Shown here: piece after piece, positions 2,400-37,146 of the stretch
How positions within the stretch are numbered: position 1 is the first letter of the stretch
Layout of the letters: each line of letters starts with the position of its first letter
DNA from: Ruminococcus sp.
Lineage (GTDB): Bacteria > Bacillota > Clostridia > Oscillospirales > Ruminococcaceae
NCBI GenBank assembly: GCA_021770655.1
Contig: JAETQO010000031.1
Span: forward strand, 1-45,634
Direction: 5' to 3'
DNA: 45,634 nucleotides
Program-made: the position numbers and the translations under genes
The notes under the pieces: model-generated
What the model was told of the DNA's origin: nothing
The model's input: the letters and a program-made list of their open reading frames with translations, nothing else
Database searches by the model: none

Positions 2400-2866
2400 T
2401 TTTTTTTAATTCGGGTCGCAGCTGCCTGCGGGCGCCTCTCTTTTGTAGCCCGAAGACCTGTCCGATCGTAAACCGCACCTAGCATTAAACCGCACATAGT
2501 CCGTCTGGCTGTTCTTCTGCAAGCTTGTTGTAACCGTTTTTGTATGTAGGGGACGATTTTTTATTTTCTTGCCCGAAGGCTTGCTTGGTCGTAAACTGTA
2601 CTTTGTCCGTCTGGTTGTTCTTCTCAAACCTTGCTGTAACTGTTTTTGTATGTAGGGGACTGCGTCCTCGACAGCCCGAACATCCCGCAGTCCGTTCGGC
2701 TGTTCTTCTATCGCATTAAAATATAAATAAATTCACACCAACGTATAATAAGAACAACCAAACGCACCTTGTACGGTTTAATGCTATGTAAAAGACCCTG
2801 CAAAACGGGTCTTCGGGCGGGATAGTTACTCCTTAAACTATCTTGCACCCCGAATTAAAAAAAATC
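2400..2866. repeat. Family 1 foldback repeat, copy 1
   Basis: About 467 bases filling the metG to anti-sigma gap. The left end is a T-run plus AATTCGGG (2408-2415), with CCCGAAGACC, then AGCATTAAACCGCACATAGT. A second, diverged arm starts near 2572. A core near 2650-2755 begins TGTAGGGGAC, contains a GCCCGAAC/GTTCGGC hairpin and ends in AATAAGAAC. The right arm is a reverse-complement arm (CGGTTTAATGCTATG, GGGTCTTCGGGC) ending CCCCGAATT at 2848-2856 plus an A-run. No credible coding sequence. The right end provides the TAA stop of the leftward anti-sigma gene. Confidence 0.85.
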
Positions 2867-3868
2867 TAAAAGCTTATTGACATCGGGCAGATTTTCTGCG
2901 CTTTCTTCTATGCTTTCAAAATCGGCGTTTTCTTTTCTGCAACCGTCTGTTTCCATAGTAAGATGGAACAAACCGTTTTCATAGATGAAATTAATACGGT
3001 AGCCTATAACGACTTCTTCATCGTCTGAACTGTCCAAAGACGGTTTTGCCACTTCATCGTATATAGCAAAGACCGTGCCGTTGTCATTTTTGAAACTGCC
3101 GGCAGATTTGTAGCAGACCGCGTAACCGTCTCTTTCCGTGTATTCCGATTCACCGTAAAGTGTTTCTTCTCTTTCGGTAACGTCAACGCCGCGTTTTTTG
3201 GTAAAGTATACGCCGTTCAGATCAGCATAAACGCCGTATTCGTTGTCTTTCCAGCCTGTAAATACAGACATATCGTAAGGATCGTCATAGGACGTGAAAT
3301 CGGGTCCCGTTGACATTATGTGATCGCTATACCCTATGGTGAACATTCCTCCGCCCAATACGGAATCCAGAAAATCGGAGTAGGGCAGTATTATTCCGCA
3401 TTCTTTTACGTTGTCCACAAGCTGAGAATAAGTATCAAAGCGTTTTGATACACTGATAACGTCTGTGTTTTCGTCCTTTTCAATGCCCTCGTGGTAATCA
3501 AGCGAATACTCCGTACGGCTATTGCCGTTTTTGTCACCCTCAAAAGTGATGCTCAGCTCGCCGCTTTCCAGAAACTTTCCGCAGTCAAACCCCTCGATAG
3601 GTTCTGCTTCGCCTAAGTTTATCTTTTCGTCGTCTATCACGCTGTAAGTCGAGATACCGAACAGGGATTTTGCAAATGTGCTAATGGAGGTAAAGTTAGC
3701 CGCGCACACTGTGATTATTGCAAGACAGGATACACAGGCTGTTGCCTTTATCCAGACTGGAGTTTTTCTTTTTGGCTTTATTTCAGCTGTCCGTGTAACA
3801 TTTTCCAGAATGTCTTCGTCAGCGTGAAGACCGTTCAGCGCTTGTTTATAGTTGTAGGTAAAATTCAT
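2855..3868 (-). CDS. Probable membrane-bound anti-sigma factor
   Basis: 337 residues: a short cytoplasmic N-terminus (~37 residues), one membrane span at about 38-60 (VWIKATACVSCLAIITVCAA), then a ~275-residue acidic extracytoplasmic domain. It lies 63 bases downstream of an ECF sigma gene in the same direction, the usual place for a cognate anti-sigma factor in Firmicutes; the layout resembles DUF4179-type proteins. I recognise no zinc-binding ZAS motif, so the role rests on context and topology. ATG start preceded by GGAAAGGAACGGG. The stop codon TAA is made from the AATTAAAA end of the Family 1 repeat, so the last codons (DFF) are set by the repeat junction. Confidence 0.7.
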   Translation of the reverse strand: MNFTYNYKQALNGLHADEDILENVTRTAEIKPKRKTPVWIKATACVSCLAIITVCAANFTSISTFAKSLFGISTYSVIDDEKINLGEAEPIEGFDCGKFLESGELSITFEGDKNGNSRTEYSLDYHEGIEKDENTDVISVSKRFDTYSQLVDNVKECGIILPYSDFLDSVLGGGMFTIGYSDHIMSTGPDFTSYDDPYDMSVFTGWKDNEYGVYADLNGVYFTKKRGVDVTEREETLYGESEYTERDGYAVCYKSAGSFKNDNGTVFAIYDEVAKPSLDSSDDEEVVIGYRINFIYENGLFHLTMETDGCRKENADFESIEESAENLPDVNKLLDFF

Positions 3869-3898
3869 ATGATCCCGTTCCTTTCCAAAAAATTTCGG

Positions 3899-3933
3899 GG
3901 AACACCGTAAAAAGCCGTCAAGCGGTGTTGCCT
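3899..3933. repeat. Small hairpin with Family 2-like ends between sigma and anti-sigma genes
   Basis: AACACCG (3901-3907) pairs with CGGTGTT (3923-3929); read leftward it starts GGCAACACCGC, matching the terminal repeat of the 179-bp Family 2 element. It overlaps the sigma stop region and lies in the transcript between the two genes, so it could set their ratio. It may be a solo remnant of Family 2. Confidence 0.5.
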
Positions 3934-4408
3934 AATCAAATTCGTATCCTTTAAGTTTTTCTTTCAGCTGTTCTCTCGCCCTCAGCAGTCTTGTGCGGAC
4001 TGTTGACGGAGTTGTTTTCATCAGCCTGGCGATCTCCACTGCCGTATATCCTTCGTAATAATGGAGATAAACAGTCATTCGATATTTTATATCCAGAGAA
4101 TTCACAGCTGATATGATTTCAAAGCTGTCATCGCTTTTAAACTCTGTTTTCAGATCTGCGTCTTCTAGGTCTATGTTTTTTCTGTGCGGCGACGACACGA
4201 TTTTTTTACATTCGTTCACAGCGACCTTGTACAGCCAGTTCTTTGCGTGCTCGTCTGATTGAAAAGTTTTTTTGCACAGATACAACTTCAGCAGAGCTGT
4301 TTGAACTGCGTCGTCGCAGTCCGCACTTTTTTTCAGATATGTATAGCAAAGTCTGTATAATGAATCCTTGTATAAGCTTCCGAGCCTGATAAATTCTTCC
4401 TCCTGCAC
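3932..4408 (-). CDS. ECF-type RNA polymerase sigma factor
   Basis: 158 residues from the preferred start. Region 2 includes DCDDAVQTALLKLY and AKNWLYKVAVNECKK (core binding and -10 recognition); region 4 is a helix-turn-helix, YTAVEIARLMKTTPSTVRTR (-35 recognition). No region 1 or 3, as in ECF sigmas. Start choice: an ATG at 4417 directly abuts GAGGAG and is too close; the GTG at 4408 has 9-base spacing, so translation probably starts there. It is the first gene of a two-gene unit with the membrane anti-sigma factor. The signal and target genes cannot be read from the sequence. Confidence 0.9.
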   Translation of the reverse strand: MQEEEFIRLGSLYKDSLYRLCYTYLKKSADCDDAVQTALLKLYLCKKTFQSDEHAKNWLYKVAVNECKKIVSSPHRKNIDLEDADLKTEFKSDDSFEIISAVNSLDIKYRMTVYLHYYEGYTAVEIARLMKTTPSTVRTRLLRAREQLKEKLKGYEFD

Positions 4409-4452
4409 AGCCGTCATCTCCTCTCTATTGATTTGAAAAGCCTTTCATATAT

Positions 4453-4480
4453 ATTATCCTTTATCCCCCTAAATCGTCCC
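4453..4480 (-). promoter_or_regulatory. Possible promoter of the sigma/anti-sigma pair
   Basis: GGGACG (4475-4480), 16 bases, GATAAT (4453-4458) on the minus strand. The -35 is poor for sigma-A, and an ECF-type self-activated promoter is possible. A Family 1 end (CCCGAAT) lies 7 bases upstream of the GGGACG. Confidence 0.35.
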
Positions 4481-4481
4481 A

Positions 4482-4938
4482 TTTTTTATTCGGGTCGCAA
4501 GGTACTTCTGGGAGTAACTTTTCCCGCCCGAAGACCTCGCTTACATTAACTTCTCCATAGCACTAAACCGCACATAGTCCGTTTGGTGGCTCTCAGCAAC
4601 GTTAGTAAATGTAGGGGCTGGCGTCCTCGACAGCCCGAACATCCCGCAGTCCGTTCGGCTGTTCTTCTATCGCATTAAAATATAAATAAATTCACACCAA
4701 CATATAATAAGAACCCCCAAACGGACTATGTACGGTTTAATGCTATGGAAAAGACCACACAAGCGAGGTCTTCGGGCTGAGTCGTAAATCCTTGAAGTAC
4801 CTATCGACCCGAATTAAAAAGAACGGTTTAATGCTATGGAAAAGACCTGCGACCCGAATTAAGAAAAGAGGGCTGAGTCGTTATTCCTTGAAGTACCTAT
4901 CGACCCGAATTAAAAAGAGCGACCCGAATAAAAAAAAA
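4482..4938. repeat. Family 1 foldback repeat, copy 2, with extra partial arms
   Basis: Left end ATTCGGG at 4488, CCCGAAGACC at ~4529, CATAGCACTAAACCGCAC, a core 4608-4712 nearly identical to copies 1 and 7, then a right arm ending CCCGAATT at 4808-4815. Beyond it are shorter nested right-arm pieces ending CCCGAATT or CCCGAAT near 4859, 4910 and 4929. The last A-run is used as the T-tract of the neighbouring leftward terminator. A 91-codon open frame through the nested part is a repeat artefact. Confidence 0.85.
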
Positions 4939-4964
4939 CTGCCGCCAGCGTTTTGGCAGCAGTT
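4928..4964 (-). terminator. Terminator of the small acidic protein gene
   Basis: Read leftward: AACTGCTGCC pairs with GGCGGCAGTT (one mismatch) and is followed by T9. The T-tract is the A-rich end of Family 1 copy 2 read on the other strand. Confidence 0.8.
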
Positions 4965-4976
4965 CTGTGTTTTTAC

Positions 4977-5216
4977 TTATTCTTCGTCCTCTTCCTCATC
5001 GAATTCATCTTCGTCATCAGATGGGATCGGAATGTCTGCTAAAGGCTCGTCTGCGCTTCTGAAATAGGCGTTAAAATCGAAACGTCCCATGCAAATACGC
5101 TCCCAATACGGCTTGCCCTGCTCAAGTACCAGAATGTTATGTTCGTGAACCTCCAGCACGTCGTAGTTCTTTCCGTATGAGTCTTTTACAACATCGCCCT
5201 TTACAACATTGGTCAT
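4977..5216 (-). CDS. Small acidic protein of unknown function
   Basis: 79 residues from the ATG at 5216. The first ~55 residues look like a small beta-rich fold (VVKGDVVKDSYGKNYDVLEVHEHNILVLEQG), and the last ~20 are almost all Asp/Glu (DDEDEFDEEEDEE). No signal peptide or membrane span. A GTG at 5225 would add three residues but overlaps the GGAAGG site, whereas the ATG at 5216 has 8-base spacing. It has its own near-perfect sigma-A promoter and terminator, so it is a single-gene unit that is probably well expressed. I do not recognise the family; an acidic tail often implies binding to basic partners such as ribosomal or nucleic-acid-binding proteins, which is only a guess. Confidence 0.8.
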   Translation of the reverse strand: MTNVVKGDVVKDSYGKNYDVLEVHEHNILVLEQGKPYWERICMGRFDFNAYFRSADEPLADIPIPSDDEDEFDEEEDEE

Positions 5217-5244
5217 TACATTCACCTTCCTTGTTTATGCCTAA

Positions 5245-5273
5245 ATTATATCATATTATAAGACCGTTGTCAA
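5245..5273 (-). promoter_or_regulatory. Sigma-A promoter of the small acidic protein
   Basis: TTGACA (5268-5273), 17 bases, TATAAT (5245-5250): exact consensus on the minus strand. The predicted transcript starts about 22 bases before the ATG at 5216, which supports that start. Confidence 0.9.
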
Positions 5274-5295
5274 TTGGCTTTCCGAATTTTTTGCC

Positions 5296-8103
5296 CTAAA
5301 CGCTTATCTTTTTCGCCGTCGTCCAAGAGCCGTACCATTTTGTCTTTGATACGGTTTTGTAGTCTCTTGCCTTAACGTAATAAGTCTTTCCCGACTTTAA
5401 TCCGCTTATCTCATCGGCAGCTTTTGAGTTTTTCGTGATCCACACAGACTTGTAGTTCTTAAAATCGACATTGTCGGCATACAGTATCTGATAGCCCGTT
5501 GCAGAAGCGTGTTTTGTTACCGTGACCGTAGCCTTCAAGGCTTTTTTATCTGCCTTTACCGTTATCTTCTGATTCTGCGGAACTATCTTAAAACTCTTTG
5601 TTACAGTACCCTTGTAATTGCCCTTTCCGGTAATGGTTATTTTCGCCGTGCCTATGTTGGTGTTGGAGGAGTACTTCAATGTGTAATCGGTGCCGCTTTT
5701 AAGCGTCTTGCCTTCGTTTTTCAAGGTGAGCGCAGGCTTTATTGCTTTTCCCGTCCATATCTTTTTGTCGGGCAGACCGCTTATCGCCACATTTGAAAGA
5801 TTTGACGTCTTTGCCGAAACGATTTTAAGCGCCGAGGAATATCCTCCGTATACTTTTTGACTGCCTATCTTTTCATAGCATCTTACCTTGTAATAGTAGG
5901 TGTTCTGTCCGAGTACCTTTTTGTCGGTAAAGCTTGTTTTTGCAGAAGTGCCGACAAGCGAATATTTTCCGTTTGAACCTGTCTTGCGGTATATTTCATA
6001 GCCGCACATACTGGTCGAACCGCCGGAATATTTTATGCCTATCCCGTTAGCAGAAACAGAGGTCTTTGCAATACCCGAAACCGTCGGCAGAGTTATGGAG
6101 GAGTTCGAGCTTTTCGCTATGCCCGAAGCCTTTACGTTTTTGATAGTGTTGTTTTTCAACTCGGCACTGCTGTAAGAAGAAACGCTTATGCCGTTTTTTC
6201 CTGCGGTATCGATGTTGTTTCCCTCAACGCCAATGTCTGTGTCGCTTGACCCCGAAACCGAAATGCCGTTTCCCGTACTGCCTGAAATCTTGTTGGAAAG
6301 CACCTCAACGTTTTCGCTTCGGTTTGTTATGGTCACGCCGTCCTTGGAGGATTTGACAATGGTGTTGCCCGTGACCTCTCCGCTTGTTTCAAGTGAGTAT
6401 GCAACGCCGTGTCCGTTACAGCCCGTTATCTTGTTGCCCTTGCAGTCCGCCTCGGAATTACAGTAAACTGTGATCCCGTTTTCCGCCGCGCCGGTTATGC
6501 TGTTGCCCGTCAACTGAGCGGAGGAATCCGCCGAAACGGAAATACCATGCTTCTGCGGCTTATACACTACGTTGTTTGACAGAATATTTTCATTAGAGTC
6601 GCTGAAAATGTTGACGCCGTTAAAGTTTGCATTTGAGATCGTGTTGCCCGTAAGAGTGTTGAAGGAGCTGTCGGACATCAGTATTCCGCTTCTTGCGGAG
6701 TTGGTAATAAGGTTATCGGTTATTTCAAGCTCACTGCTGTCCGTTATGTTCACGTTGTTTTTATCTCTGAAATTCATTCCATCGCTTATGCAGATAAAAA
6801 TATTGGAATCGATTTTACAGTTTGCGGCGTCGTTTATTACAAGGGTCGTGCCTCTGGATTCTATCCTGTTGTCACGGATATCGACTCCCGAAATGCAGAA
6901 ATTATGATCGGGAATTACCTCGTTGTCCGAAACGTCATATCCGTAAAGCATTATCCCACAGGTGTAGCCGTTTTCATCGGTAGCGTTTGTGGAAATATCG
7001 TTTGAGCATATCACGGAGTTTGCGTCGGAAACGACATTTTCAATCGCCTGAGTCATTGTTCCCTGAGCGGGAGCGTGAAAATTACTGTCGGGAAGTCTTG
7101 ACATAGACTTGAACTCGATTCCGCTTGCGCAGTTCTTGAGAGTATTTCCGGAGATCGTGCAGTTTCTGTAATTGTACATTATCATCGCCGTGCCGCTGAG
7201 GTTTTCAAAGGTGTTGTTCTCAATGAGAATGTTGTCGTAATAAACGCCTACGGTCGCCGAATGAGAGCCTAATCCCCGGCATATGCCCGAAAACAGATTA
7301 TCTCTTATGATCACATTCTCGCAGGCGGTATCGTCAAAAGGTTCATAGCCCGGGAAAACCTCCGCGCTGTTTATGCAGTCAAGCTGAATAGCCTCTTTCT
7401 GAAGATCTCCGCTGTAGCCGGTAAAAGTGCAGTTCTCGATCGTGATGTTGGACGCGCCTCCTATTTCCAGATGATGACCGTCCTGATTGTTTGTAACGGT
7501 GAGATCCTTGAGGAGCAGATTTCTGCAATGAGCAAATCTCATGTTTGAGAATTCCGCAAGGCTCGGATATTCGTCGGTGTTACCGTTCCATGTCCCGCCT
7601 TGGATAATTATGTTTTCTGCTCCGTCATATCCGCCGATACCGTTCTGATCGGTTCTGAGCAGCGGTCCGTAGGGCGTACAGCGTTTAAGCTCCGCTCCCT
7701 CCTCACAATATATCCAAGTGTTGCTGTAGACCACAAGGGAATTTGAAAGCAGATATGTTCCCTCTGGAATAATGATCTTAGTGAGCACTCCCTTTTCGGA
7801 GTTCTCTTTGGCTTTGTCCAGCGCCGCCTGAATCTGTCCGTCTGCCACGCCTATTCCCGTGTTGTCGGCATTGAATTCCTTTTCGGCGTCTATCTCTATT
7901 ACCGCAAGGCTGTCGAGGTCAAAAACAGCGCCGACAGCGTTTGCCCCCTTTTGCTCTTCCTGATCGGCAGAAACACCGTAGCTGTCCGAAATTCTGCCCG
8001 GAATAGCGGACAACAGCATAGAAACCATAATCAGCGTCATTATAAACGCAGTTAAACGTTTTGATATTTTTCTTTTGTAAAAAACGTCTGATAGCATTAA
8101 CAT
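5296..8103 (-). CDS. Secreted right-handed beta-helix repeat protein with C-terminal fibronectin-III-like domains
   Basis: 935 residues. Signal sequence or anchor at about residues 14-38 (basic KRKISKRL, then a hydrophobic run). From ~70 there is a pectate-lyase-like/NosD parallel beta-helix: many rungs of the form ITxNTITxxxxxGI. It opens with the usual GVADGQIQAALDKA and IIIPEGTYLL motifs, then IENNTF- and ISGNTL-type turns to about 640. The tail holds Fn3-like and Ig-like modules (YEIYRKTGSNGKY; NYKGTVTKSFKIV) and ends WYGSWTTAKKISV, as in the partial protein at 1-117. Such proteins bind or cleave polysaccharides; no lyase catalytic set is evident, so substrate is unknown. Start: AAGGAG lies 10 bases before the ATG at 8103; the longer frame to 8133 lacks a site. 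Confidence 0.85.
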   Translation of the reverse strand: MLMLSDVFYKRKISKRLTAFIMTLIMVSMLLSAIPGRISDSYGVSADQEEQKGANAVGAVFDLDSLAVIEIDAEKEFNADNTGIGVADGQIQAALDKAKENSEKGVLTKIIIPEGTYLLSNSLVVYSNTWIYCEEGAELKRCTPYGPLLRTDQNGIGGYDGAENIIIQGGTWNGNTDEYPSLAEFSNMRFAHCRNLLLKDLTVTNNQDGHHLEIGGASNITIENCTFTGYSGDLQKEAIQLDCINSAEVFPGYEPFDDTACENVIIRDNLFSGICRGLGSHSATVGVYYDNILIENNTFENLSGTAMIMYNYRNCTISGNTLKNCASGIEFKSMSRLPDSNFHAPAQGTMTQAIENVVSDANSVICSNDISTNATDENGYTCGIMLYGYDVSDNEVIPDHNFCISGVDIRDNRIESRGTTLVINDAANCKIDSNIFICISDGMNFRDKNNVNITDSSELEITDNLITNSARSGILMSDSSFNTLTGNTISNANFNGVNIFSDSNENILSNNVVYKPQKHGISVSADSSAQLTGNSITGAAENGITVYCNSEADCKGNKITGCNGHGVAYSLETSGEVTGNTIVKSSKDGVTITNRSENVEVLSNKISGSTGNGISVSGSSDTDIGVEGNNIDTAGKNGISVSSYSSAELKNNTIKNVKASGIAKSSNSSITLPTVSGIAKTSVSANGIGIKYSGGSTSMCGYEIYRKTGSNGKYSLVGTSAKTSFTDKKVLGQNTYYYKVRCYEKIGSQKVYGGYSSALKIVSAKTSNLSNVAISGLPDKKIWTGKAIKPALTLKNEGKTLKSGTDYTLKYSSNTNIGTAKITITGKGNYKGTVTKSFKIVPQNQKITVKADKKALKATVTVTKHASATGYQILYADNVDFKNYKSVWITKNSKAADEISGLKSGKTYYVKARDYKTVSKTKWYGSWTTAKKISV

Positions 8104-8129
8104 TTTGTTTTGTCTCCTTAAAATGCGTC

Positions 8130-8230: not shown

Positions 8231-8240
8231 ATACAATATT

Positions 8241-11138: not shown

Positions 11139-11142
11139 AAAG

Positions 11143-13750: not shown

Positions 13751-14095
13751 CTTTTTTAATTCGGGTCGCAAGGTACTTCAAGGAGTTACGACTCAGCCCG
13801 AAGACCTCGCTTGCATGATCTTTTCCATAGCATTAAACCGCACATAGTCCGTCTGGTGGTTCTCGGTATTTTTTGTTCGGGTCACAAGGTACTTCAAGGA
13901 GTAACAACTCAGCCCTCTTTTCTTAATTCGGGTCGCAAGGTACTTCAAGGAGTTACGACTCAGCCCGAAGACCTCGCTTGCATGATCTTTTCCATAGCAT
14001 TAAACCGCACATAGTCCGTTTGGTGGTTTTCAGCAACGTTAGTAAATGTAGGGGGCTGGCGAAAATTGTCTTTCGGTTAACTCACGGCAATTTAT
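13751..14095. repeat. Family 1 repeat, copy 3 (left arms only, nested)
   Basis: Three left ends (AATTCGGG at 13758, TTCGGG near 13874, AATTCGGG at 13925), two complete arms with CCCGAAGACCTCGCTTGCAT and CATAGCATTAAACCGCACAT, and a core with TGTAGGGGGC and the AAAATTGTC...CGGCAATTT hairpin also present in copy 4. There is no right arm, so this copy is truncated. Bases 14096-14198 show nothing further. Confidence 0.8.
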
Positions 14096-16478: not shown

Positions 16479-16577
16479 TTTCAAGGAAAGCGCTGATTAA
16501 ATCAAATTTGCCTCGTTCAAATGGGTAAATTCACGCGGCTGAATTTGATACGCTTCGCTATAATCAGCGCATTCCTA
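16479..16577. repeat. Family 3 palindromic repeat, copy 1
   Basis: AAGGAAAGCGCTGATTAAATC at the left end faces ATAATCAGCGCATTCCT at the right; GCGCTGATTA pairs exactly with TAATCAGCGC. Inside are AATTTG...GAATTTGAT and ACGCGGCTG. The right end overlaps the TAG stop of the leftward DUF4363 gene, so it lies immediately in its 3' untranslated region and could act as a hairpin terminator or stabiliser. The rest of 16283-16478 holds nothing I can support. Confidence 0.75.
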
Positions 16578-16949
16578 AAATACAGAATAAAGGTGTGGGA
16601 ATTGGCTGTCATAAATTTTTTTCGCCCATGCCTTTATGCTTTCGCATTCGGAGAGAAAATCCTCTGAGTCCCGTTCAAGGAGCGCAGGAAGTTTTGCAAC
16701 GGAATATGAGATGTCGTCCAGTGTGCAGGTCTGAGAAAGATATGATACCTTGACATAGTATTCCCGCCAGTAGTCCTCCAGTTCGTCAAGCATTTGTTTG
16801 GTATTCTCTGAACCGTCTCGGTAGCTCTGAGCGGTGCTGTCGATAAGCCGGAAAAGCTTATCGTTCGCTTTTTCGACAGCAAAAATGGAATAGACCGATA
16901 CGGCGGCGATGGAACAGAGTATTACAACGCAAACAGCCAGACGTTTCAT
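16575..16949 (-). CDS. DUF4363 family protein
   Basis: 124 residues with an N-terminal membrane anchor or uncleaved signal (MKRLAVCVVILCSIAAVSVYSI) and an alpha-helical, probably extracytoplasmic remainder (WREYYVKVSYLSQ, DDISYSVAKLPALLERD). This matches the DUF4363 family, which in Clostridia is usually encoded next to DUF421 proteins. Its ATG overlaps the stop codon of the DUF421 gene by 4 bases, so the two are translationally coupled. Function unknown. The stop codon falls in the terminal repeat of the Family 3 element. Confidence 0.8.
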   Translation of the reverse strand: MKRLAVCVVILCSIAAVSVYSIFAVEKANDKLFRLIDSTAQSYRDGSENTKQMLDELEDYWREYYVKVSYLSQTCTLDDISYSVAKLPALLERDSEDFLSECESIKAWAKKIYDSQFPHLYSVF

Positions 16950-17635: not shown

Positions 17636-18245
17636 CTTTTTTTAATTCGGGTCGCAGTGTACAGCGTAAAAGTACGACTCAGCCCGAAGACCTCGCTTGC
17701 ATTAACTTCTCCATAGCATTAAACCGCACAAAGTCCGTTTGGTGGTTTTCAATAATGTAGGGAACGATAAAAATTGTCGTTCGGCTAACTCACGGCAATT
17801 TTCATGCCTTGAACCAACGTAGCGAAAAAACTACCAACCTCACTAAGTACGGTTTAGTTTTTCAACAACATTCAGAAGAACAACAAAACGCACTCTGTAC
17901 GGTTTAATGATATGTAAAAAACCACACAAGCGAGGTCCTTGGGCGGTAAAAGTCACTCTCAGAAGTACCTCTCGACCCGAATAAAAAATACCAAACGGAC
18001 TATGTGCGGTTTAATGCTATGGAGAAGTTAATGCAAGCGAGGTCTTCGGGCTGAGTTGTAACTCCTTGAAGTACCTATCGACCCGAATTAAGAAAAGAGG
18101 GCTGAGTTGTGACTCCTTGAAGTACCTATCGACCCGAATTAAGAAAAGAGGGCTGAGTTGTGACTCCTTGAAGTACCTATCGACCCGAATTAAGAAAAGA
18201 GGGCTGAGTTGTAACTCCTTGAAGTACCTTGCACCCCGAATTAAA
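17636..18245. repeat. Family 1 foldback repeat, copy 4 (longest)
   Basis: About 610 bases filling the gap between the divergent DUF421 and gerA genes. The left arm starts AATTCGGG at 17644 with CCCGAAGACCTCGCTTGCAT. A core at ~17755-17810 carries AAAAATTGTC...GGCAATTTT. Two right arms follow (the first ending CCCGAATAAAAAA near 17983), the second running into a tandem array of 51-bp units and ending CCCCGAATT at 18234-18242. No real gene inside. Confidence 0.85.
18048..18245. repeat. Tandem array of 51-bp units inside Family 1 copy 4
   Basis: The string GGGCTGAGTTGT recurs at 18048, 18099, 18150 and 18201, exactly 51 bases apart. Units are nearly identical (GTAACTCC or GTGACTCC; ...TATCGACCCGAATT or ...TTGCACCCCGAATT). 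Because 51 is divisible by three, an open frame of 17-residue repeats results; it has no ribosome binding site and is treated as an artefact. Each unit holds one end-proximal hairpin of the foldback arm. Confidence 0.9.
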
Positions 18246-18268
18246 AATAGTTTGCGGAAAATATTTGA

Positions 18269-18298: not shown

Positions 18299-18385
18299 AG
18301 AAAGCGCTGATTAAATCGAATTCGCCCCGTTCAGCTGTGGAAACTCACGCGGCTGAATTTAAGGCAACACCGCACAACTATTTTA
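18299..18385. repeat. Chimera of Family 3 left half and Family 2 left end
   Basis: GAAAGCGCTGATTAAATCG...ACGCGGCTGAATT matches the left two-thirds of Family 3, then switches at TTTAAGGCAACACCGCACAACTA to the left end of Family 2. Neither right end is present. It lies directly upstream of the gerA ribosome binding site and would be in the leader of the germination operon. Confidence 0.7.
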
Positions 18386-18405
18386 TGAAAGGCAAAGGGA
18401 TTGAA

Positions 18406-22158: not shown

Positions 22159-22255
22159 TTAAGGAAGCACTGATTAAATCAAATTCGCCCCGTTCAAACA
22201 ATGAAACTCACGCGGCTGAATTTGATACGCTTCGCTTTAATCAGTGCATCCTTAA
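22159..22255. repeat. Family 3 palindromic repeat, copy 2 (complete, TTAA ends)
   Basis: 97 bases. Ends are TTAAGGAAGCACTGATTAAA and TTTAATCAGTGCATCCTTAA, complementary over the length save one position. Compared with copy 1, the stem pair GCGC/GCGC is GCAC/GTGC here, a compensated change. TTAA at both ends matches the Family 2 flanks. It lies 34 bases after the gerC stop. Confidence 0.8.
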
Positions 22256-22331
22256 TATAGCCAAAGCTTCGGCGAATTTAACGTCGGGGCTTTGGCGCTG
22301 GGAATACGTTGGATAACAGATTACAAATAAG

Positions 22332-25671: not shown

Positions 25672-25985
25672 TTTTTAATTCGGGTCTTTTTTTAATTCGG
25701 GTCGCAGCTGCCTGCGGGCGGGTTTATTTTGTAGCCCGAAGAGTTCGTCCGGTCGTAAACCGAACATAGCATTAAACCGTACATGGTGCGTTTGGCTGTT
25801 CTTCTACGACTTTGTTTCAAGGCACGGAAAAATGTATGGGCGATGAAAATTGTCTTTCTTTTTAATTCGGGTCGCAGCTGCCTGCGGGTGGGTTTATTTT
25901 GTAGCCCGAAGAGTTCGTTCGGTCGTAAACCGAACATAGCATTAAACCGTACATGGTGCGTTTGGCTGTTCGCGTTAGTGATTGC
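25672..25985. repeat. Family 1 repeat, copy 5 (two left arms in direct orientation)
   Basis: A ~110-base unit occurs twice in the same direction (from 25693 and from 25865): AATTCGGGTCGCAGCTGCCT, TAGCCCGAAGAGTTCGT, CGGTCGTAAACCGAACATAG, CATTAAACCGTACATGGTGC, TTTGGCTGTT. A solo AATTCGGG precedes the first at 25677. Variant arms resemble the left arm of copy 1 (GCAGCTGCCTGCGGGCG). No right arms. Bases 25986-26060 show nothing but a ribosome binding site at the end. Confidence 0.8.
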
Positions 25986-26064
25986 AGAGTGTGACGGGAC
26001 GATGTGGAATTTGTCCTCTAACAGTATATATTGGCGGTCATAACTATGTTAAGGAGGAATAACA

Positions 26065-26136
26065 ATGTTCTGTCTTTGTCAACCATTCCTCATTCCTAAT
26101 TTCTCATTGTCAAGGGAGCTGTTTTATGAAGTTTGA
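26065..26136 (+). CDS. Possible 23-codon leader peptide overlapping apbE
   Basis: A strong site, AAGGAGG with 7-base spacing, precedes an ATG at 26065 that opens a 23-codon frame (MFCLCQPFLIPNFSLSRELF...) ending TGA at 26134-26136, inside the apbE coding sequence (overlap 11 bases). The apbE start has its own GGGAG. This could be a coupling or sensing leader peptide, or the degraded start of a lost gene. The peptide sequence itself matches nothing I know. Confidence 0.35.
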   Translation: MFCLCQPFLIPNFSLSRELFYEV

Positions 26137-27130: not shown

Positions 27131-27166
27131 TGCAGTGTCGTTCGGCTGTCGCATGACGCTTTAGTA

Positions 27167-27345
27167 TTAAGGCAACACCGCACAACTATTGTCTAACGGC
27201 TTTGTACACGTCTAACTTGCCAATTTTCCGTTATCTTGCACAGAGACTTCTTGAAAGACACAAGTATTCCTGCGTCGTTTCTATACAATCTAACGAAAAA
27301 TTTTCTGCGTTATCCGCACACAACAGTTGTGCGGTGTTACCTTAA
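27167..27345. mobile_element. Family 2 MITE-like element, copy 1 (179 bp)
   Basis: The ends are TTAAGGCAACACCGCACA and, inverted, TTAAGGTAACACCGCACA; the terminal repeats run ~21 bases with one difference. TTAA at both edges suggests a TTAA target. The interior (TCTAACGGCTTTG...ATTCCTGCGTCGTTTCTA) has no coding potential. A second full copy at 37972-38150 is nearly identical and the same length, which argues for recent mobility by a transposase elsewhere. Confidence 0.8.
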
Positions 27346-27368: not shown

Positions 27369-27782
27369 CATTAAGGCAACACCAACCGCACCTTGTGTGG
27401 TTTAATGCTATGTAAAAGTTAATGCAAGCGAGGTCTTCGGGCTGAGTCGTCACTCCCAGAAGTACCTATCGACCCGAATTAAGAAAAGACGTCACTCCTT
27501 GAAGTACCTTGCACTCCGAATAAAAAAACACCAAACGGACTATGTGCGGTTTAGTGCTATGGAGAAGTTAATGCAAGCGAGGTCTTCGGGCTGAGTCGTC
27601 ACTCCCAGAAGTACCTATCGACCCGAATTAAGAAAAGACGTCATTCCTTGAAGTACCTTGCACTCCGAATAAAAAAACACCAAACGGACTATGTGCGGTT
27701 TAGTGCTATGGAGAAGTTAATGCAAGCGAGGTCTTCGGGCTGAGTCGTTACTCCCAGAAGTACCTTGCGACCCGAATTAAAA
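27369..27782. repeat. Family 1 repeat, copy 6 (tandem right arms before rnfC)
   Basis: Starts with a Family 2 scrap (TAAGGCAACACC) then ~2.7 units of a 149-bp tandem repeat: GGTCTTCGGGCTGAG recurs at ~27432, 27581 and 27730. Each unit is a right arm (GCGGTTTAGTGCTATGGAG, AATGCAAGCGAGGTCTTCGG, GAAGTACCTATCGACCCGAA) plus a partial arm ending CACTCCGAATAAAAAAA. The last end, CCCGAATTAAAAA, touches the rnfC ribosome binding site, so this array is the immediate upstream leader of rnf. Confidence 0.85.
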
Positions 27783-27794
27783 AGGAGGATATTT

Positions 27795-29096: not shown

Positions 29097-29143
29097 CCGA
29101 ACAGTCCGGCAGTTCTGCCTGCAAAGGCGTAAATATTTGAAAA

Positions 29144-29168: not shown

Positions 29169-29177
29169 GGTTGAAAT

Positions 29178-31345: not shown

Positions 31346-31914
31346 TGAGCTACATACTTATCCTTATAGGCTGTGTGTTTGTAAACAACGTGGTGCTTTC
31401 ACAATTTATGGGCATATGTCCGTTCCTCGGCGTTTCCAAGCAGATGAAATCCTCTGTCGGAATGGGCGCGGCGGTAATATTCGTAATGATATGCGCCACA
31501 GCTATAACATACCCCGTTTACAGACTGCTGGAGAAATTCGGCATAGAATATCTTAAAACCGTAGCGTTCATTCTCGTAATAGCGATGTTTGTTCAGCTTG
31601 TGGAGATCGTTATGAAAAAGATGATGCCGCCGCTTTATAAGGCGCTTGGCGTTTATCTTCCCCTTATCACCACAAACTGCGCAGTGCTGGGCGTAACTAT
31701 CGGCAATATCGACAACGGCTATAACTTTGCTCAGTCGCTTACCAACGCACTCGGCACAGGTCTTGCCTTTACGCTTGCGCTTCTGCTTTTCAGCGGAGTA
31801 AGATCGAGAATAGAAAACTGCGATTTTCCCGAAACCTTCAAGGGCGTTCCCGCAACGCTTATAGCGGCTTCGATAGTTTCTTTGAGCTTTATGGGCTTTT
31901 CGGGAATAATATAG
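31345..31914 (+). CDS. rnfA: Rnf complex subunit A (RnfA)
   Basis: 189 residues, six spans, partner of RnfE. Starts MSYILILIGCVFVNNVVLSQFMGICPFLGVSK, which is the family opening; the Cys in MGICPFLG and in TNCAVLG match the iron-site positions of NqrE/RnfA. Start: ATG at 31345 overlaps the rnfE stop and has AGGAGG 10 bases upstream; the frame's earlier TTG at 31336 is unlikely. Confidence 0.95.
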   Translation: MSYILILIGCVFVNNVVLSQFMGICPFLGVSKQMKSSVGMGAAVIFVMICATAITYPVYRLLEKFGIEYLKTVAFILVIAMFVQLVEIVMKKMMPPLYKALGVYLPLITTNCAVLGVTIGNIDNGYNFAQSLTNALGTGLAFTLALLLFSGVRSRIENCDFPETFKGVPATLIAASIVSLSFMGFSGII

Positions 31915-31926
31915 GAGGAAGATAAC

Positions 31927-32715: not shown

Positions 32716-32727
32716 AAAGGTGCGGGT

Positions 32728-32814
32728 CCAGCGGCGCGACGCTGGTCGGGTGCAGGGTGAAACGCCTGCCGGGTCAAGGGCAGCGCCCTTGCAGGGTATG
32801 GGGCAGCGCCCCAT
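32728..32814. repeat. GC-rich palindrome cluster after rnfB
   Basis: Three small hairpins close together: CCAGCG/CGCTGG (32728-32745), AAGGGCAGCGCCCTT (32776-32790) and ATGGGGCAGCGCCCCAT (32798-32814). GC content is far above the flanks. Such GGGCAGCGCCC strings are familiar as extragenic palindromes in gut Clostridia. No gene was found in 32716-33255; bases 32815-33029 hold nothing I can name. Confidence 0.5.
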
Positions 32815-33029
32815 TTCGGCGACAGCCGAACAGGCGCAGATCAAGTAAAAAGCAGAACAGCAAAAGAAAATCATTGATGCCACTTTGACAGAATGTCGCC
32901 ATCTGCGCCGTTTCAACTTTTCGCATTGATCGGTCTTTCCTCGCAAAGAGCCTGCGATTTTGCGGCGCGGATAAGTCCGATCGAAACAGATAAAACACAA
33001 AACCAAAGTCATTAGCATCAAGCAGAATC

Positions 33030-33066
33030 AGCCGTTCGGGATAAGCAAGTACCCCGAACGGCTTTT
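33030..33066 (+). terminator. Rho-independent terminator, probably of the rnf operon
   Basis: AGCCGTTCGGG pairs with CCCGAACGGCT around ATAAGCAAGTAC-type loop, followed by TTT and C. It lies 315 bases past rnfB and ~80 bases before the murT promoter. Confidence 0.7.
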
Positions 33067-33096
33067 CGTATTTGTACACAATATCACCGACCGAAG

Positions 33097-33120
33097 CCTT
33101 AAATTTGGTCAAATTTAAGG
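33097..33120. promoter_or_regulatory. Perfect inverted repeat upstream of the murT promoter (candidate operator)
   Basis: CCTTAAATTTG and CAAATTTAAGG, 11-base arms with a 2-base centre, 27 bases upstream of the -35 box. The short centre and AT-rich arms suggest a dimeric regulator's binding site rather than an RNA hairpin. The regulator is unknown. Confidence 0.45.
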
Positions 33121-33147
33121 AAACTTGCAATAACCCCCTGAAATTCC

Positions 33148-33176
33148 TTGACAAGACGGATTAATTGTTCTATTAT
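33148..33176 (+). promoter_or_regulatory. Sigma-A promoter of murT-gatD
   Basis: TTGACA (33148-33153), 17 bases, TATTAT (33171-33176). ATG of murT follows ~80 bases later with GGGAG. Confidence 0.8.
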
Positions 33177-33255
33177 TATTTTATATGTTGTCTATAATAA
33201 TGACAGACCCTGCGCCGTGAAAACGGCTGTATAAATATTTCGGGAGTATCATAAT

Positions 33256-34617
33256 ATGAGTATAAAAAACGCATTTACCATAGTTTTCGGAAAGCTTATG
33301 GTCAAAATCCTCCGACTTCTGGGCAGAGATGCGGGAAATTTTCCCGGACTTGTGCTTTGGACTGTAAATAAGGACTGCCTGAAGGCTTTCAAGGTGGAGT
33401 GTCCGATAATAGCCGTTACGGGTACTAACGGAAAAACCTCCGTTACAAATTATCTCAGTCATATTTTTTCAAGCGGAGGAAAGAAAATAATAACGAATCC
33501 CCAGGGCAATAATCTTGATACGGGTATATGCTCACTGCTTTTACAGCACTGCGATATGAAGGGAAGAGTGAAAGCCGACTATCTTGTCCTTGAAACCGAC
33601 GAATCCCACGTTCCCGTGGTCTATTCAAAGCTTAAGCTTGAAACTCTCGTCCTGCTGAACTTTTTCCGCGACCAGCTTGACCGCAACGGCGAGGTGGAAA
33701 CGCTGATACTGAAAGTGAAAAAGTTCCTTGAAACTTTTGAGGGGAACGTCGTACTCAATGCGGACGACCCCAACGTTGCAAGACTGGGACTTGCAAACCC
33801 CAATAATAAAAATATATACTATTTCAGCGTGGATAAATATTCCGGCGCAACTGATAAGCCTTACGAGGTCGGCGAGGGAAAGTTTTGTCCTTTCTGCGAT
33901 ACCGAGCTTGTCTATGACTATTATCAGTATTCTCATATCGGCAGATTCCATTGTCCAAAATGCGGTTTCGGCAAAGTCAAGCCCTACACTCAGATAAAAA
34001 ACGTCGATCTTTCAGCGCCCTCCTTTGAGGCGGACGGAGAGACCTATAAAACCGCTCATAACAGTATCTATTATATGTACAATATGTCGGCGGTCTATTC
34101 AGCCGCAAAGCTCTATAAATTTGATAAATCCGTTCTCCGCGATACCTTTGAGCATTTCGAGGTTAATAACGGCAGAATGGAGCGTTTTGAGATAGGCGGC
34201 AGCAGACTGCTCGTTAACCTTGCAAAGAATCCCGTGGGAGCAAATATGACTCTGCGCGTCATGAACGAGCAGGAAGGCTCTAAGGAACTGCTGTTCGTGC
34301 TTAACGACAACCTTGCGGACGGTCACGACGTTTCGTGGATATGGGATATCAACTTTTCCGTTTTCAAGGACGTTGACAGAGTTATCACCAGCGGTACAAG
34401 AGCTTACGATATTGCTATAAGAATAAAGTGTTCGGGCTATGACCCCGATAAGATTTTCGTTTATCCCGATCTCGATGACGCTATGAAAGCGCTTTTCTCC
34501 ACGGTCGGAGAAAAATTCGCAATAGCGAACTATACCGCCGTTCAGCCGACAAGAGCGGCGATAAAGCGTTATAAAAATTCCTGTGAAAGAACGGAGGAGC
34601 AAAATGGAAAAGCTTAA
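33256..34617 (+). CDS. murT: Lipid II isoglutaminyl synthase, Mur ligase subunit MurT
   Basis: 453 residues. With GatD it converts the D-Glu of lipid II to D-isoglutamine in the cytosol, an ATP-dependent step in Gram-positive peptidoglycan. Mur ligase P-loop TGTNGKT at 55-61, ETDESHV, and VLNADDPNVARL. A zinc-binding insert has Cys211, Cys214, Cys233 and Cys236 (CPFC, CPKC), as in Staphylococcus and Streptococcus MurT. The C-terminal DUF1727 domain carries NLAKNPVGANMTLR. ATG has GGGAG 9 bases upstream. The end overlaps gatD by 14 bases. Confidence 0.96.
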   Translation: MSIKNAFTIVFGKLMVKILRLLGRDAGNFPGLVLWTVNKDCLKAFKVECPIIAVTGTNGKTSVTNYLSHIFSSGGKKIITNPQGNNLDTGICSLLLQHCDMKGRVKADYLVLETDESHVPVVYSKLKLETLVLLNFFRDQLDRNGEVETLILKVKKFLETFEGNVVLNADDPNVARLGLANPNNKNIYYFSVDKYSGATDKPYEVGEGKFCPFCDTELVYDYYQYSHIGRFHCPKCGFGKVKPYTQIKNVDLSAPSFEADGETYKTAHNSIYYMYNMSAVYSAAKLYKFDKSVLRDTFEHFEVNNGRMERFEIGGSRLLVNLAKNPVGANMTLRVMNEQEGSKELLFVLNDNLADGHDVSWIWDINFSVFKDVDRVITSGTRAYDIAIRIKCSGYDPDKIFVYPDLDDAMKALFSTVGEKFAIANYTAVQPTRAAIKRYKNSCERTEEQNGKA

Positions 34618-35344
34618 ACTTCTGCATATGTATCCCAATATGCTTGACCTATACGGCGACAGCGGAAATGTTGAGATATTGTCTTACCGATGCAGGGAGA
34701 GAGGGATCGAGCTTGAAGTTTCAACGCACATGATAGGTGACAGAGAAACGGATTTCACTCAGTTCGATATTATCTACCTCGGCGGAGGAGCGGACTTTGA
34801 GCAGCAGCTCCTTGCAGAGGATTTGCTTTCCTGTAAGGATAAGATAGCGGCGGCTTATAACGCAGGCTCTTTCTTTCTGATGATATGCGGCGGCTATCAG
34901 CTTATGGGACAGTACTATAAGGATTCCAACGGCGAAAAGATCCCCGGTCTGGGGCTTTTCGATTACTATACCTCGGCTTCAACGGATAAACGGTGCAGAT
35001 GTATAGGCAATATAGTCGTGGAAACGGAGATAGACGGTGAGAAATATAAAGTCATCGGTTTTGAAAATCACGGCGGACAGACCGTGAACGTAAAAAGTCC
35101 GTTCGGAAAGGTGCTTTACGGAAACGGAAACGAGTTTGAGAGCAGTGCAGAGGGTTATACCGAGGAAAACGTTATTGCAACCTACCTTCACGGACCTCTG
35201 CTTTCGAAAAATCCCAAGCTCAGCGACAGGATAATTTCCTATTGTATGACCGTACGTCAAGGCGTAAAGTATCTGCCGAAACCGCTGAACGATAAGCTTG
35301 AAAACGACTGCCGCAAACAGCTTTTTGAAAGATTGGGTGTGTAA
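34604..35344 (+). CDS. gatD: Lipid II isoglutaminyl synthase, glutaminase subunit GatD
   Basis: 246 residues, class I glutamine amidotransferase fold. Nucleophile Cys95 in MICGGYQLMG and catalytic His196 in TYLHGPLL, positions close to Cys94 and His189 of the S. aureus enzyme. It releases ammonia from glutamine and channels it to MurT. Start: ATG at 34604 with GGAGGAGC just upstream; an earlier frame ATG at 34583 would lie deep in murT without a site. Overlap of 14 bases with murT shows coupling. Confidence 0.95.
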   Translation: MEKLKLLHMYPNMLDLYGDSGNVEILSYRCRERGIELEVSTHMIGDRETDFTQFDIIYLGGGADFEQQLLAEDLLSCKDKIAAAYNAGSFFLMICGGYQLMGQYYKDSNGEKIPGLGLFDYYTSASTDKRCRCIGNIVVETEIDGEKYKVIGFENHGGQTVNVKSPFGKVLYGNGNEFESSAEGYTEENVIATYLHGPLLSKNPKLSDRIISYCMTVRQGVKYLPKPLNDKLENDCRKQLFERLGV

Positions 35345-35346
35345 AA

Positions 35347-35700
35347 ATGCTGTCGCTTTTCAGAAAAAAGACGGCGGAGTATGAACCGCCGCTGAAGAAG
35401 AAAATCAAGGATATGAAATGCCGCAAAATAAATTTTGTGGACGAGGGCTTCGACACTCTCGGAAAGGAAATGTCCGACGACCCTAAAGCGATAATGCGTC
35501 TGAAACCGGTGAATTACTATGCCGTAAAAAACGCATATATTATGGGAAAGGTCTACACCTCCGAGGACTGTTCGGAAAATTACGTTCAGTTTTTCCGCTA
35601 TGAGCATGAGCACGAAACGGGGAAAACGGATATATATCCGCTGGATAAGGAATTGCTTTCAAAAGCCCTTGCGAAAGTCGGGATAATCATTGATGTGTAG
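35347..35700 (+). CDS. Small protein of unknown function in the murT-gatD unit
   Basis: 117 residues. Basic N-terminus (FRKKTAEYEPPLKKKIKDMKCRK), then a mixed alpha/beta part (VNYYAVKNAYIMGKVYTSEDCSENYVQFFRYEHEHETGKTDIYPLDKELL). No signal peptide or membrane span. It begins 2 bases after the gatD stop, has no promoter, and shares the terminator, so it is cotranscribed with the lipid II amidation pair. I do not recognise the family. A cell-wall role is inference from place only. Confidence 0.8.
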   Translation: MLSLFRKKTAEYEPPLKKKIKDMKCRKINFVDEGFDTLGKEMSDDPKAIMRLKPVNYYAVKNAYIMGKVYTSEDCSENYVQFFRYEHEHETGKTDIYPLDKELLSKALAKVGIIIDV

Positions 35701-35730
35701 ACAGTGCTGTGTTGCCTTAAATGAAATAAT

Positions 35731-35780
35731 AAAAAGCAAGAGGAGTCACATTGAGTGAAACGTCCTCTTGCTTTTTTATT
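35731..35780. terminator. Bidirectional terminator between the murT unit and nadA
   Basis: AAAAAGCAAGAGGA pairs with TCCTCTTGCTTTTT; T6 rightward and T5 leftward (from the opposite A-run). Just before it, 35704-35721 (GTGCTGTGTTGCCTTAA) resembles the right end of Family 2. Confidence 0.9.
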
Positions 35781-35802
35781 TTAGGTGCGTCAATGTATTC
35801 GG

Positions 35803-36726
35803 TCAACCGCCGAGCCTTATCATTTCGTCAATACATTTTTTTGCCGAGGCGATTTCCTCCGAAGTCATTTTTATTTCAAAGCCTCCGCCGTTTCCGATAC
35901 CCTCGCAGGTCTTGTAAACGTCCATAAGAGTGGTAAGCTTCATGTTCGGACAGATTATCTTTTTCGACAGTATGTAAAATTCCTTGTCCGGGAAACGGTA
36001 CTGCAAATGCTCCGCAATGGAGATCTCCGTTCCGATGATAAACTCCTTTGAGTCCGACTCGGCAGCATAATTCATTATGCCGGAGGTAGAACCTGCATAA
36101 TCAGCCATAGCCGTGACTTCGGGTATACATTCAGGGTGGCAGAGAACAAGCGCGTCGGGGTGAGCGGTCTTTGCGGCGATCATATCCGCTTTGGTGACCG
36201 ATGCGTGTACGGGACAACCGCCCTGCAAAAGCTTTATATCCTTGTCGGGACACTGATTTTGCACGAATGTTCCGAGATTGCAGTCCGGGATAAAAAGAAT
36301 TTTATCCGCGTCCATATTCTTCACTATCTTGACAGCCGAAGAAGAGGTCACGCACACGTCGCATACCGATTTCAGCTTAGCCGTGGTGTTTATGTAGCAA
36401 ACCACCTTGCGCTCAGGATCCTGCGCCTTAATAGCCTCGATCATTTCAGGCTCCATCTGTTCTGCCATAGGGCAGCCTGCCTCGGGGTTGGCAAGATAAA
36501 CGTTCTTGTCCGGCGAGAGCATTTTTGCCGTTTCCGCCATAAAATGCACTCCGCACATAAGGATATTCTTAGTGGACACCTTCTGCGCCTCTACGCTCAG
36601 CTTGTAAGAATCGCCGGTAATATCCGCGATCTCAACGATCTCTTTAGCTTGATAGCTGTGGGCGAGAATACAAATGTCCTTTTCCTTTTTCAGCTTTAAT
36701 ATTTTCTCCTGTACGTCTTTTATCAT
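35803..36726 (-). CDS. nadA: Quinolinate synthase
   Basis: 307 residues; condenses iminoaspartate with dihydroxyacetone phosphate to quinolinate, the first committed NAD step, using a 4Fe-4S cluster. The three expected ligand cysteines are visible: MCGVHFMAET, GGCPVHASVTKADM and KTCEGIGNGGG. ILAHSYQ near the start and YINTTAKLKSVCDVCVTSSSAV are family blocks. Start: TTG at 36744 has no site; AAGGTGA lies 5-6 bases before the ATG at 36726. nadB and nadC are not adjacent. Single gene; its promoter abuts a Family 1 repeat. Confidence 0.95.
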   Translation of the reverse strand: MIKDVQEKILKLKKEKDICILAHSYQAKEIVEIADITGDSYKLSVEAQKVSTKNILMCGVHFMAETAKMLSPDKNVYLANPEAGCPMAEQMEPEMIEAIKAQDPERKVVCYINTTAKLKSVCDVCVTSSSAVKIVKNMDADKILFIPDCNLGTFVQNQCPDKDIKLLQGGCPVHASVTKADMIAAKTAHPDALVLCHPECIPEVTAMADYAGSTSGIMNYAAESDSKEFIIGTEISIAEHLQYRFPDKEFYILSKKIICPNMKLTTLMDVYKTCEGIGNGGGFEIKMTSEEIASAKKCIDEMIRLGG

Positions 36727-36772
36727 ACTTATCACCTTTTTCAAAGTTTTTTCGACTCAACTATACTCCCTA

Positions 36773-36801
36773 ATTATATTATGACGGCACCGATTTGTCA
36801 A
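36773..36801 (-). promoter_or_regulatory. Sigma-A promoter of nadA
   Basis: TTGACA (36796-36801), 17 bases, TATAAT (36773-36778): exact consensus on the minus strand. A Family 1 end (AATTCGGG at 36813) starts 11 bases upstream of the -35. Confidence 0.88.
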
Positions 36802-36803
36802 TC

Positions 36804-37146
36804 TTTTTTTTAAATTCGGGGTGCAAGGTAGTGCAAGGAGTGACTTTTCTAGCCCGAAGACCTCGCTTGCATTAACTTCTCCATAGCATTAAACCGTACA
36901 TAGTCCGTTTGGTGGCTCTCAGCAACATTAGTAAATGTAGGGGCTGGCGTCCTCGATAGTCCGAACGTCCTGCAATCCGTTCGGTTGTTCTTCTATCACA
37001 TTAAAATATAAATAAATTCACACCAAGGCATAATAAGAACACCCAAACGCACTTTGTACGGTTTAATGCTATGGAAAAGACCACACAAGCGGGATCTTCG
37101 GGCTGAGTTGTTACTCCTTGCACTACCTTGCACCCCGAATTAAAAA
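36804..37146. repeat. Family 1 foldback repeat, copy 7 (best complete example)
   Basis: About 343 bases, two arms and one core between the divergent nadA and thiT promoters. Left end AATTCGGGGTGCAAGGTAGT, right end (inverted) AATTCGGGGTGCAAGGTAGT: both arms share the unusual GGTAGTGCAAGGAGT variant seen nowhere else here, which suggests arms are matched within a copy. Core 36935-37044 as in copies 1 and 2. Each end sits 9-11 bases from a -35 box (nadA to the left, thiT to the right). Confidence 0.88.

What the first reader, a model, noticed from the sequence alone, without database searches (positions are those of the whole stretch)
2400..37146. Family 1: a dispersed foldback element in seven intergenic regions, no protein
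Copies at 2400-2866, 4482-4938, 13751-14095, 17636-18245, 25672-25985, 27369-27782 and 36804-37146 share ATTCGGG/CCCGAAT ends, a TTCGGG...CCCGAA hairpin, the string CATAGCATTAAACCGCAC, and (copies 1, 2, 7) a core starting TGTAGGGGC or close to it and ending AATAAGAAC. Complete copies have left and right arms in inverted orientation. About 3 kb of this 45.6 kb window is this family, all between genes. I know of no described element matching it.
Basis: seen in the sequence. Interest (0 to 1): 0.7.

Follow-up and report, generated by a model that had tools for sequence, protein, structure and literature searches.

The report
Modular intergenic repeat in a Ruminococcus
One Ruminococcus genome carries an apparently undescribed family of non-coding DNA repeats, built from swappable blocks that extend outward in fixed steps and often sit close against the start signals of genes, which makes it a good test case for how such repeats spread in bacteria.

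Summary
In the stretches I held, the genome has 69 clusters and 175 hits of a 113-nt directional "arm". "Foldback" fits only part: 23 of 69 clusters have arms in both orientations; in the window only copies 1, 2, 4 and 7 do. Arms face outward, and partial arms are added outward at fixed registers. The two arms of one foldback copy are no more alike than arms of different copies; allele blocks are only loosely linked. The gaps holding copies 4, 5 and 6 are short and armless in Ruminococcus bicirculans. No arm turned up in 28 congeners, 147 other genomes of a family draw, plasmids, phages or viral contigs, within the limits of each search. I found no target duplication, no covarying RNA structure, and no partner among four transposase families tested. 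Best reading: a lineage-specific, BOX- or BrickBuilt-like interspersed repeat that spread as a non-autonomous element by a machinery not identified here. It is not shown to be a MITE.

The parts
2402..2862 (.). copy 1: left arm 2402-2515 (-), core 2516-2750, right arm 2751-2862 (+)
4482..4938 (.). copy 2: left arm ending 4592 (-), core 4593-4709, right arm 4710-4821 (+), outer partial arm to 4917 and, by reading, a short terminal repeat to about 4938
13752..14095 (-). copy 3: two full left-facing arms (about 13752-13863 and 13918-14029) with a 51-nt-type partial arm between; inner side runs, by reading, into a palindromic core to about 14095; no right arm
17638..18248 (.). copy 4: left arm ending 17748 (-), core 17749-17876, two right arms (17877-17989, 17985-18096, +) and three 51-nt outer units to 18248
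25672..26091 (-). copy 5: two left-facing arms of a divergent loop type (25688-25802, 25857-25971), a terminal mini-repeat at about 25672, and the far 5' module (GAGGAATGGTTGACAAAG, 26074-26091, minus strand)
27380..27784 (+). copy 6: three right-facing arms alternating with two 40-nt partial units; by reading, the outer end abuts the Shine-Dalgarno of rnfC (27795)
36807..37147 (.). copy 7: left arm ending 36918 (-), core 36919-37035, right arm 37036-37147 (+); the left end is beside a TTGACA-17-TATAAT promoter (36801-36773, minus strand), the right end, by reading, beside a promoter before the TPP riboswitch

Best explanation
This is a lineage-specific family of small non-coding interspersed repeats that spread as non-autonomous elements into the short gaps between genes. 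Its working end is the outer 50 nt or so of a 113-nt directional arm (TTCGGG, about 30 nt, CCCGAATTAAAAAGA), which nearly every copy keeps. Shown: dispersal through the genome, a constant outer end and polarity, outward addition of terminal units of about 91, 51 and 17-19 nt, mosaic arms, short armless gaps in relatives, and one core subfamily at unrelated loci. Inferred: that whole elements were inserted by an enzyme acting in trans; that arrays grew by slippage or unequal exchange between direct copies; that copies exchange blocks by gene conversion; and that copies survive only where they leave promoter, ribosome-binding site or coding end intact, which is why many ends sit close against start signals.
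For: Arms: 175 hits, 112 full, in 37 stretches (279,394 nt including the window) of a 2.657-Mb genome. CGGTTTAATGCTATG with up to 2 mismatches occurs 152 times genome-wide, 0 in the reversed-pattern control; my own count in the held stretches gives 146. Outer end: 170 of 175 hits reach arm position 108 or beyond; starts fall at 1-6 (117), 22-23 (26), 62-65 (18), others 14. Of the 44 partial arms starting at 22-23 or 62-65, 39 lie within 3 nt of the outer end of another arm. Copies 2 and 7 are 89% identical over their whole length at unrelated loci, and at least five clusters share core sequence. Gaps in relatives, between matched protein ends: apbE-rnfC 39 nt in R. bicirculans, 45 in G028, 27 in a Ruminococcus MAG, about 664 here; in R. 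bicirculans hth-apbE 156 against 510 and duf421-gerA 107 against about 770; no convincing arm in those stretches. Distribution: 0 of 28 congeners by a 26-mer with up to 3 mismatches; in a draw of 148 family genomes only this one matched the sequence model. Ends: 31 of 87 outer ends have an outward sigma-70-like promoter within 22 nt and 15 of 87 a Shine-Dalgarno plus reading frame, against 9.8% and 4.9% of intergenic positions in stretches of two relatives. Blocks such as GGTTTA, TTCGGGC and CGAATT stay near invariant while arms of different clusters average 80% identity.
Against: No target-site duplication above chance in 22 of 23 two-armed clusters (one was not tested). No transposase candidate: PF01797, PF00665 and PF07282 have no match, and the one PF01609 match has no arm nearby; other families were not searched. 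The two arms of a cluster are not more alike than swapped arms (innermost pairs n=19, p=0.71; outermost n=17, p=0.06), and L-L, R-R and L-R similarities are alike (0.79, 0.76, 0.78), which simple copying of two-armed units does not predict for most clusters. Stop codons at ends: 11 of 87 (13%) against 11% of intergenic positions, though 3% at A-tracts. Copies 1, 2, 3 and 7 of the window have no tested empty site. Gain in this lineage is inferred from absence in relatives; loss is not formally excluded. The distribution searches are limited: one search is exact only, and one search scored 25 candidates per genome with stricter filters.
Confidence: 0.6

Rival explanations
1. The repeats spread mainly by recombination, without an enzyme of their own: template switching or unequal exchange copies terminal blocks between repeats, and the tandem arms are minisatellite-like products. 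No transposition is going on now.
For: Arms are mosaics: in 99 typed arms loop end with inner block (p=0.41) and loop with inner block (p=0.19) are not linked beyond shuffles, the other four block pairs moderately so (V 0.30-0.44). Arms of one cluster are independent draws. No target duplication and few transposases among four families. Same-orientation arms within a cluster are more alike (0.87, 31 pairs) than arms of different clusters (0.80).
Against: A constant outer terminus at unrelated flanks, and whole-element copies 2 and 7 at unrelated loci, are hard to get by homologous exchange alone.
Confidence: 0.22
2. The arms are cis-acting regulatory or structural RNA units kept for function, as proposed for BOX elements: the hairpins act on transcripts of the neighbouring genes.
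For: Ends lie close to promoters and ribosome-binding sites more often than controls. A two-armed copy folds strongly (copy 7, z -15.7). Each pair of the stem TTCGGG/CCCGAA is kept in 92-100% of 112 full arms although the loop between changes.
Against: RNAalifold on 34 arms gives -1.46 kcal/mol, 5 pairs and no compensatory change. The TTCGGG/CCCGAA stem hardly varies and its commonest variant (9 of 112) breaks a pair. Most of the strongest linked columns are near neighbours and few of them pair. No Rfam match to the repeat.
Confidence: 0.1
3. The arms are protein-binding sites of the chromosome (as gyrase or nucleoid-protein sites in E. coli BIMEs are, recalled), amplified by selection for that role.
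For: Short near-invariant blocks with variable spacers in 112 arms, and tandem arrays of sites.
Against: Found in one genome only of those searched, which is unusual for a core chromosome function; no binding data. The Y1 transposase of the REP/BIME kind has no match.
Confidence: 0.06

Closest known systems
BOX elements of Streptococcus pneumoniae (PMC3049150, passages read)
   Same: Small interspersed repeats made of modules, with a variable number of tandem internal modules; proliferated in the species' past; found clustered with other repeat families.
   Different: Here the tandem units are copies of the terminal part added outward at fixed registers, arms occur in outward-facing pairs, and no covarying RNA structure was found. 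The passages say an IS with similar ends has been proposed for BOX; none is known here. BOX module sequences were not compared.
BrickBuilt MITE of Porphyromonas gingivalis (PMC4596501, outline with abstract and section 5 read)
   Same: Species-level intergenic repeat containing a minisatellite; 19 loci, leader and tail modules, some copies lacking one or both.
   Different: BrickBuilt has a 23-nt internal repeat between a leader and a tail; here the repeats are terminal, 17-113 nt, in 69 clusters.
REP/BIME arrays with RAYT transposases (recalled)
   Same: Palindromic intergenic units, alone, in tandem and in inverted pairs.
   Different: The Y1 transposase family (PF01797) has no match in this genome; the units are longer and modular.
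Drosophila FB foldback elements (recalled)
   Same: Long inverted arms containing tandem subrepeats around a variable core.
   Different: Bacterial, short, and with arms that are not matched within a copy.

Membership tests
MITE | short, non-coding, many dispersed copies | tested here: met
   175 arms in 69 clusters; arms overlap reading frames of 150 aa or more by over 40 nt in 5 of 175 cases, not examined; long gaps between arms hold ordinary-looking frames (judged by eye)
MITE | terminal inverted repeats at both ends of each copy | tested here: inconclusive
   23 of 69 clusters have arms in both orientations; of 46 with one orientation, 19 carry a different far-end module on the inner side and 8 have under 150 nt of inner side in hand
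MITE | target-site duplication | tested here: not met
   22 of 23 two-armed clusters tested: distribution like that of swapped flanks
MITE | autonomous relative with the same ends in the genome | tested here: inconclusive
   PF01797, PF00665, PF07282 no match; one PF01609 match without arms; other families not searched
REP/BIME | REP-associated Y1 transposase in the genome | tested here: not met
   PF01797 no match in the own genome; the control rings in 5 of 14 known genomes
BOX element | modular repeat with a variable number of tandem units | tested here: met
   units of about 91 and 51 nt, and short terminal repeats, appended in varying number
BOX element | boxA, boxB and boxC sequences | not tested
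   BOX models were not at hand
structured RNA family | covarying base pairs or an Rfam match | tested here: not met
   no Rfam match to the repeat; no compensatory pair in the arm

The most novel reading that the evidence does not exclude
A bacterial repeat whose ends extend themselves: copies of its terminal 17, 51, 91 or 113 nt are added outward at fixed registers by a dedicated process, without a classical transposase, until the repeat abuts gene start signals, where its A-tract end takes over as upstream promoter or ribosome-site spacer.
Probability: 0.1. Interest if true: 0.75.

Novelty: new variant of a known kind. Interest (0 to 1): 0.5.

Why it matters
In a genome where few transposases were found by the four families tested, a non-coding family has reached 69 clusters; the three window sites that could be compared are short and armless in the nearest named relative. 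Its fixed registers, constant polarity and mosaic arms give testable constraints on how such repeats grow and move. It also places repeat ends beside promoters and ribosome-binding sites of many genes, so strain differences in array length could change expression.

Tried and rejected
Known RNA family: no Rfam match to the repeat in window or in L060 5300-5800. Plasmid, phage or virus origin: no match to copy 7 or to the exact 26-mer. Hidden transposase between arms: reading frames in seven regions were judged by eye as ordinary or short, without a family search; the only PF01609 match (L194) has no arm sequence nearby. Inverted repeats around it were listed and show nothing like the arm. A weak arm hit in G028 (11.6 bits) aligns poorly and lies, by reading, in coding-looking sequence: taken as chance. 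Conserved RNA structure of the arm: not supported. Target-site duplication: none. Literature searches listed no paper on this repeat, judged from titles and abstract starts; two searches listed 15 of 76 and 6 of 9 papers, in the held open-access library only. Papers: PMC4596501 outline with abstract and section 5; PMC3049150 and PMC10969869 passages only; all others search listing only. A first estimate of flush ends used loose criteria (30 of 85 promoter, 24 of 85 SD, 33 of 85 stop); the stricter test with controls is the one I rely on. 3 of 92 ends had no anchor and were dropped; of the 89 left, 87 could be classified. One search ended in a script error after its first results; redid the rest. 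My cluster rule splits where a right-facing arm is followed by a left-facing one, so polarity is judged, which has no such rule.
Full report
What was claimed and what is there. The finding named seven intergenic copies of a foldback element. All seven are present and repetitive. The window is a whole contig (C35) of a 2.657-Mb, 92-contig genome. Its genes look like ordinary chromosomal ones (Pfam matches for metG, P-type ATPase, ger, apbE, rnf, murT/gatD, nadA, thiT and secA products).

Anatomy. The building block is a directional arm of 113 nt: AGAACCACCAAACGGACTATGTGCGGTTTAATGCTATGG, a variable middle, TTCGGGC, a loop of about 30 nt, CCCGAATTAAAAAGA. In 175 arm hits the outer end is constant (170 reach position 108 or beyond). 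The inner start falls at 1-6 (117), 22-23 (26) or 62-65 (18), with 14 others. Partial arms are appended outward: 39 of 44 of the two main partial types lie within 3 nt of another arm's outer end. Of 97 arms with no like-facing arm within 130 nt on their inner side, 84 are full. Short terminal repeats of 17-19 nt were seen at 16 places by pattern. Polarity: with hits linked under 1500 nt there are 62 clusters, and in 60 of them left-facing arms lie to the left of right-facing ones; in the other two, right-facing arms are followed by left-facing ones after 708 and 795 nt of gene-like sequence.

Two kinds of cluster. Linked under 700 nt and split at those places there are 69 clusters: 23 with both orientations, 22 left only and 24 right only. 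Of the 46 with one orientation, 19 carry a far-end module like GAGGAATTGTTGACAAAG within 700 nt on the inner side in the expected sense, 2 in the other sense, and none on the outer side; 8 have under 150 nt of inner side in hand; 4 of 23 two-armed clusters also hold the module. By reading, many run from this module through a connector and a palindrome ending CCCCTACA into the arm. The GAGGAAT runs and the TGTAGGGG palindrome also occur in G015 without arms. G015 contig 1 has the length of R. bicirculans 80/3 chromosome I, and the same gene block. At least five two-armed clusters share core sequence (window copies 1, 2, 7, C43 and, inverted, C49). Copies 2 and 7 match over their whole length at 89%.

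Mosaic arms. The middle and loop blocks come in several alleles. In 99 arms that my patterns could type, four of six block pairs are linked (V 0.30 to 0.44 against 0.20 to 0.22 in shuffles), while the inner block is not linked beyond chance to the loop (p 0.19) or the loop end (p 0.41). Arms of one cluster in opposite orientation are not more alike than swapped arms, while same-orientation arms in a cluster are (0.87 against 0.80, no significance test). This fits exchange between copies and local tandem duplication, not faithful copying of matched pairs.

Structure. Copy 7 folds very well as a single strand because its arms are complementary (z -15.7). The arm on its own shows no covariation: RNAalifold gives 5 pairs and none compensatory, and the TTCGGG/CCCGAA stem is too constant to be informative, with 9 of 112 arms breaking one pair. 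Near-invariant blocks with replaced spacers look more like protein-recognition sites than an RNA fold; this is inference.

Where the ends lie. Of 87 outer ends, 31 (36%) have an outward promoter-like pair within 22 nt, 15 (17%) a Shine-Dalgarno and reading frame, and 11 (13%) an inward reading frame ending there; 54 have at least one. Intergenic positions in stretches of two relatives (8,150 position-directions, not independent) give 9.8%, 4.9%, 10.9% and 24%; the 92 of them that start with AAAAA give 13%, 5.4%, 3.3% and 22%. So gene starts are enriched about threefold, and stops only against the second, small control. Copy 6 ends at the ribosome site of rnfC, copy 7 beside a perfect promoter on the nadA side. 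I read this as survival of insertions that spare signals, helped by A-tracts that resemble natural upstream sequence; target choice is not excluded.

Origin. The gaps that hold copies 4, 5 and 6 are short in R. bicirculans (107, 156 and 39 nt between matched protein ends), and the gap of copy 6 is short in two further relatives; sequence in the gaps is too diverged to place the insertion point exactly. Copies 1, 2, 3 and 7 were not resolved; for copy 7 no thiT match appears beside nadA in the G015 stretch. No arm occurs in 28 congeners by 26-mer at up to 3 mismatches (20 of the 29 genomes including the own are at least 90% complete), in 60 relatives by blastn of copy 7 beyond core matches in G015, in 147 other genomes of a family draw by sequence model (stricter filters, 25 candidates scored per genome), or by exact 26-mer in 84,980 species genomes (the own genome may be left out). 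Distant versions could be missed. Gain in this lineage is the simplest reading.

Mechanism. Non-autonomous spread followed by recombination between copies explains dispersal, the constant end, whole-element copies and mosaics. The enzyme is missing: three transposase families have no match and the fourth gives one match with no arms. No target duplication was found. I therefore do not file it as a MITE. It works most like BOX or BrickBuilt repeats (PMC3049150 passages, PMC4596501 abstract and section 5), with an unusual outward-growing end.

Noticed in passing
window 27157-27345 and 37962-38150: A second repeat family with palindromic ends TTAAGGCAACACCGCACAACT, 92% identical copies; the exact 21-mer is also in 8 of 194 loci then held, some of them overlapping the same place.
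   Followed up: partly
window 16488-16582, 18302-18396, 22165-22259: A third short repeat (AAGCGCTGATTAAATC...), two copies 65% and 85% identical to the first.
   Followed up: no
window 37182-37290 (+): TPP riboswitch before thiT, 50.4 bits, just under Rfam's gathering score of 54.3, so missed by the default scan.
   Followed up: yes
whole genome G000: Few transposases by the families tested: none of PF01797, PF00665, PF07282 and a single PF01609 match, in a genome rich in small repeats.
   Followed up: partly
L155, L158, L160, L033 (R. bicirculans-like G015): Intergenic-looking GAGGAATGAGGAATT runs, some followed by a hairpin-like ATCGCC...GGCGAT, in L158 with a T-run (by reading).
   Followed up: no
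L138 4397-4621, L148 409-648, L053 3585-3869: Another repeated stretch next to arms, whose reading frame gives LTERKGAAGQNFPSNSPRPPRNFDR in three contigs.
   Followed up: no
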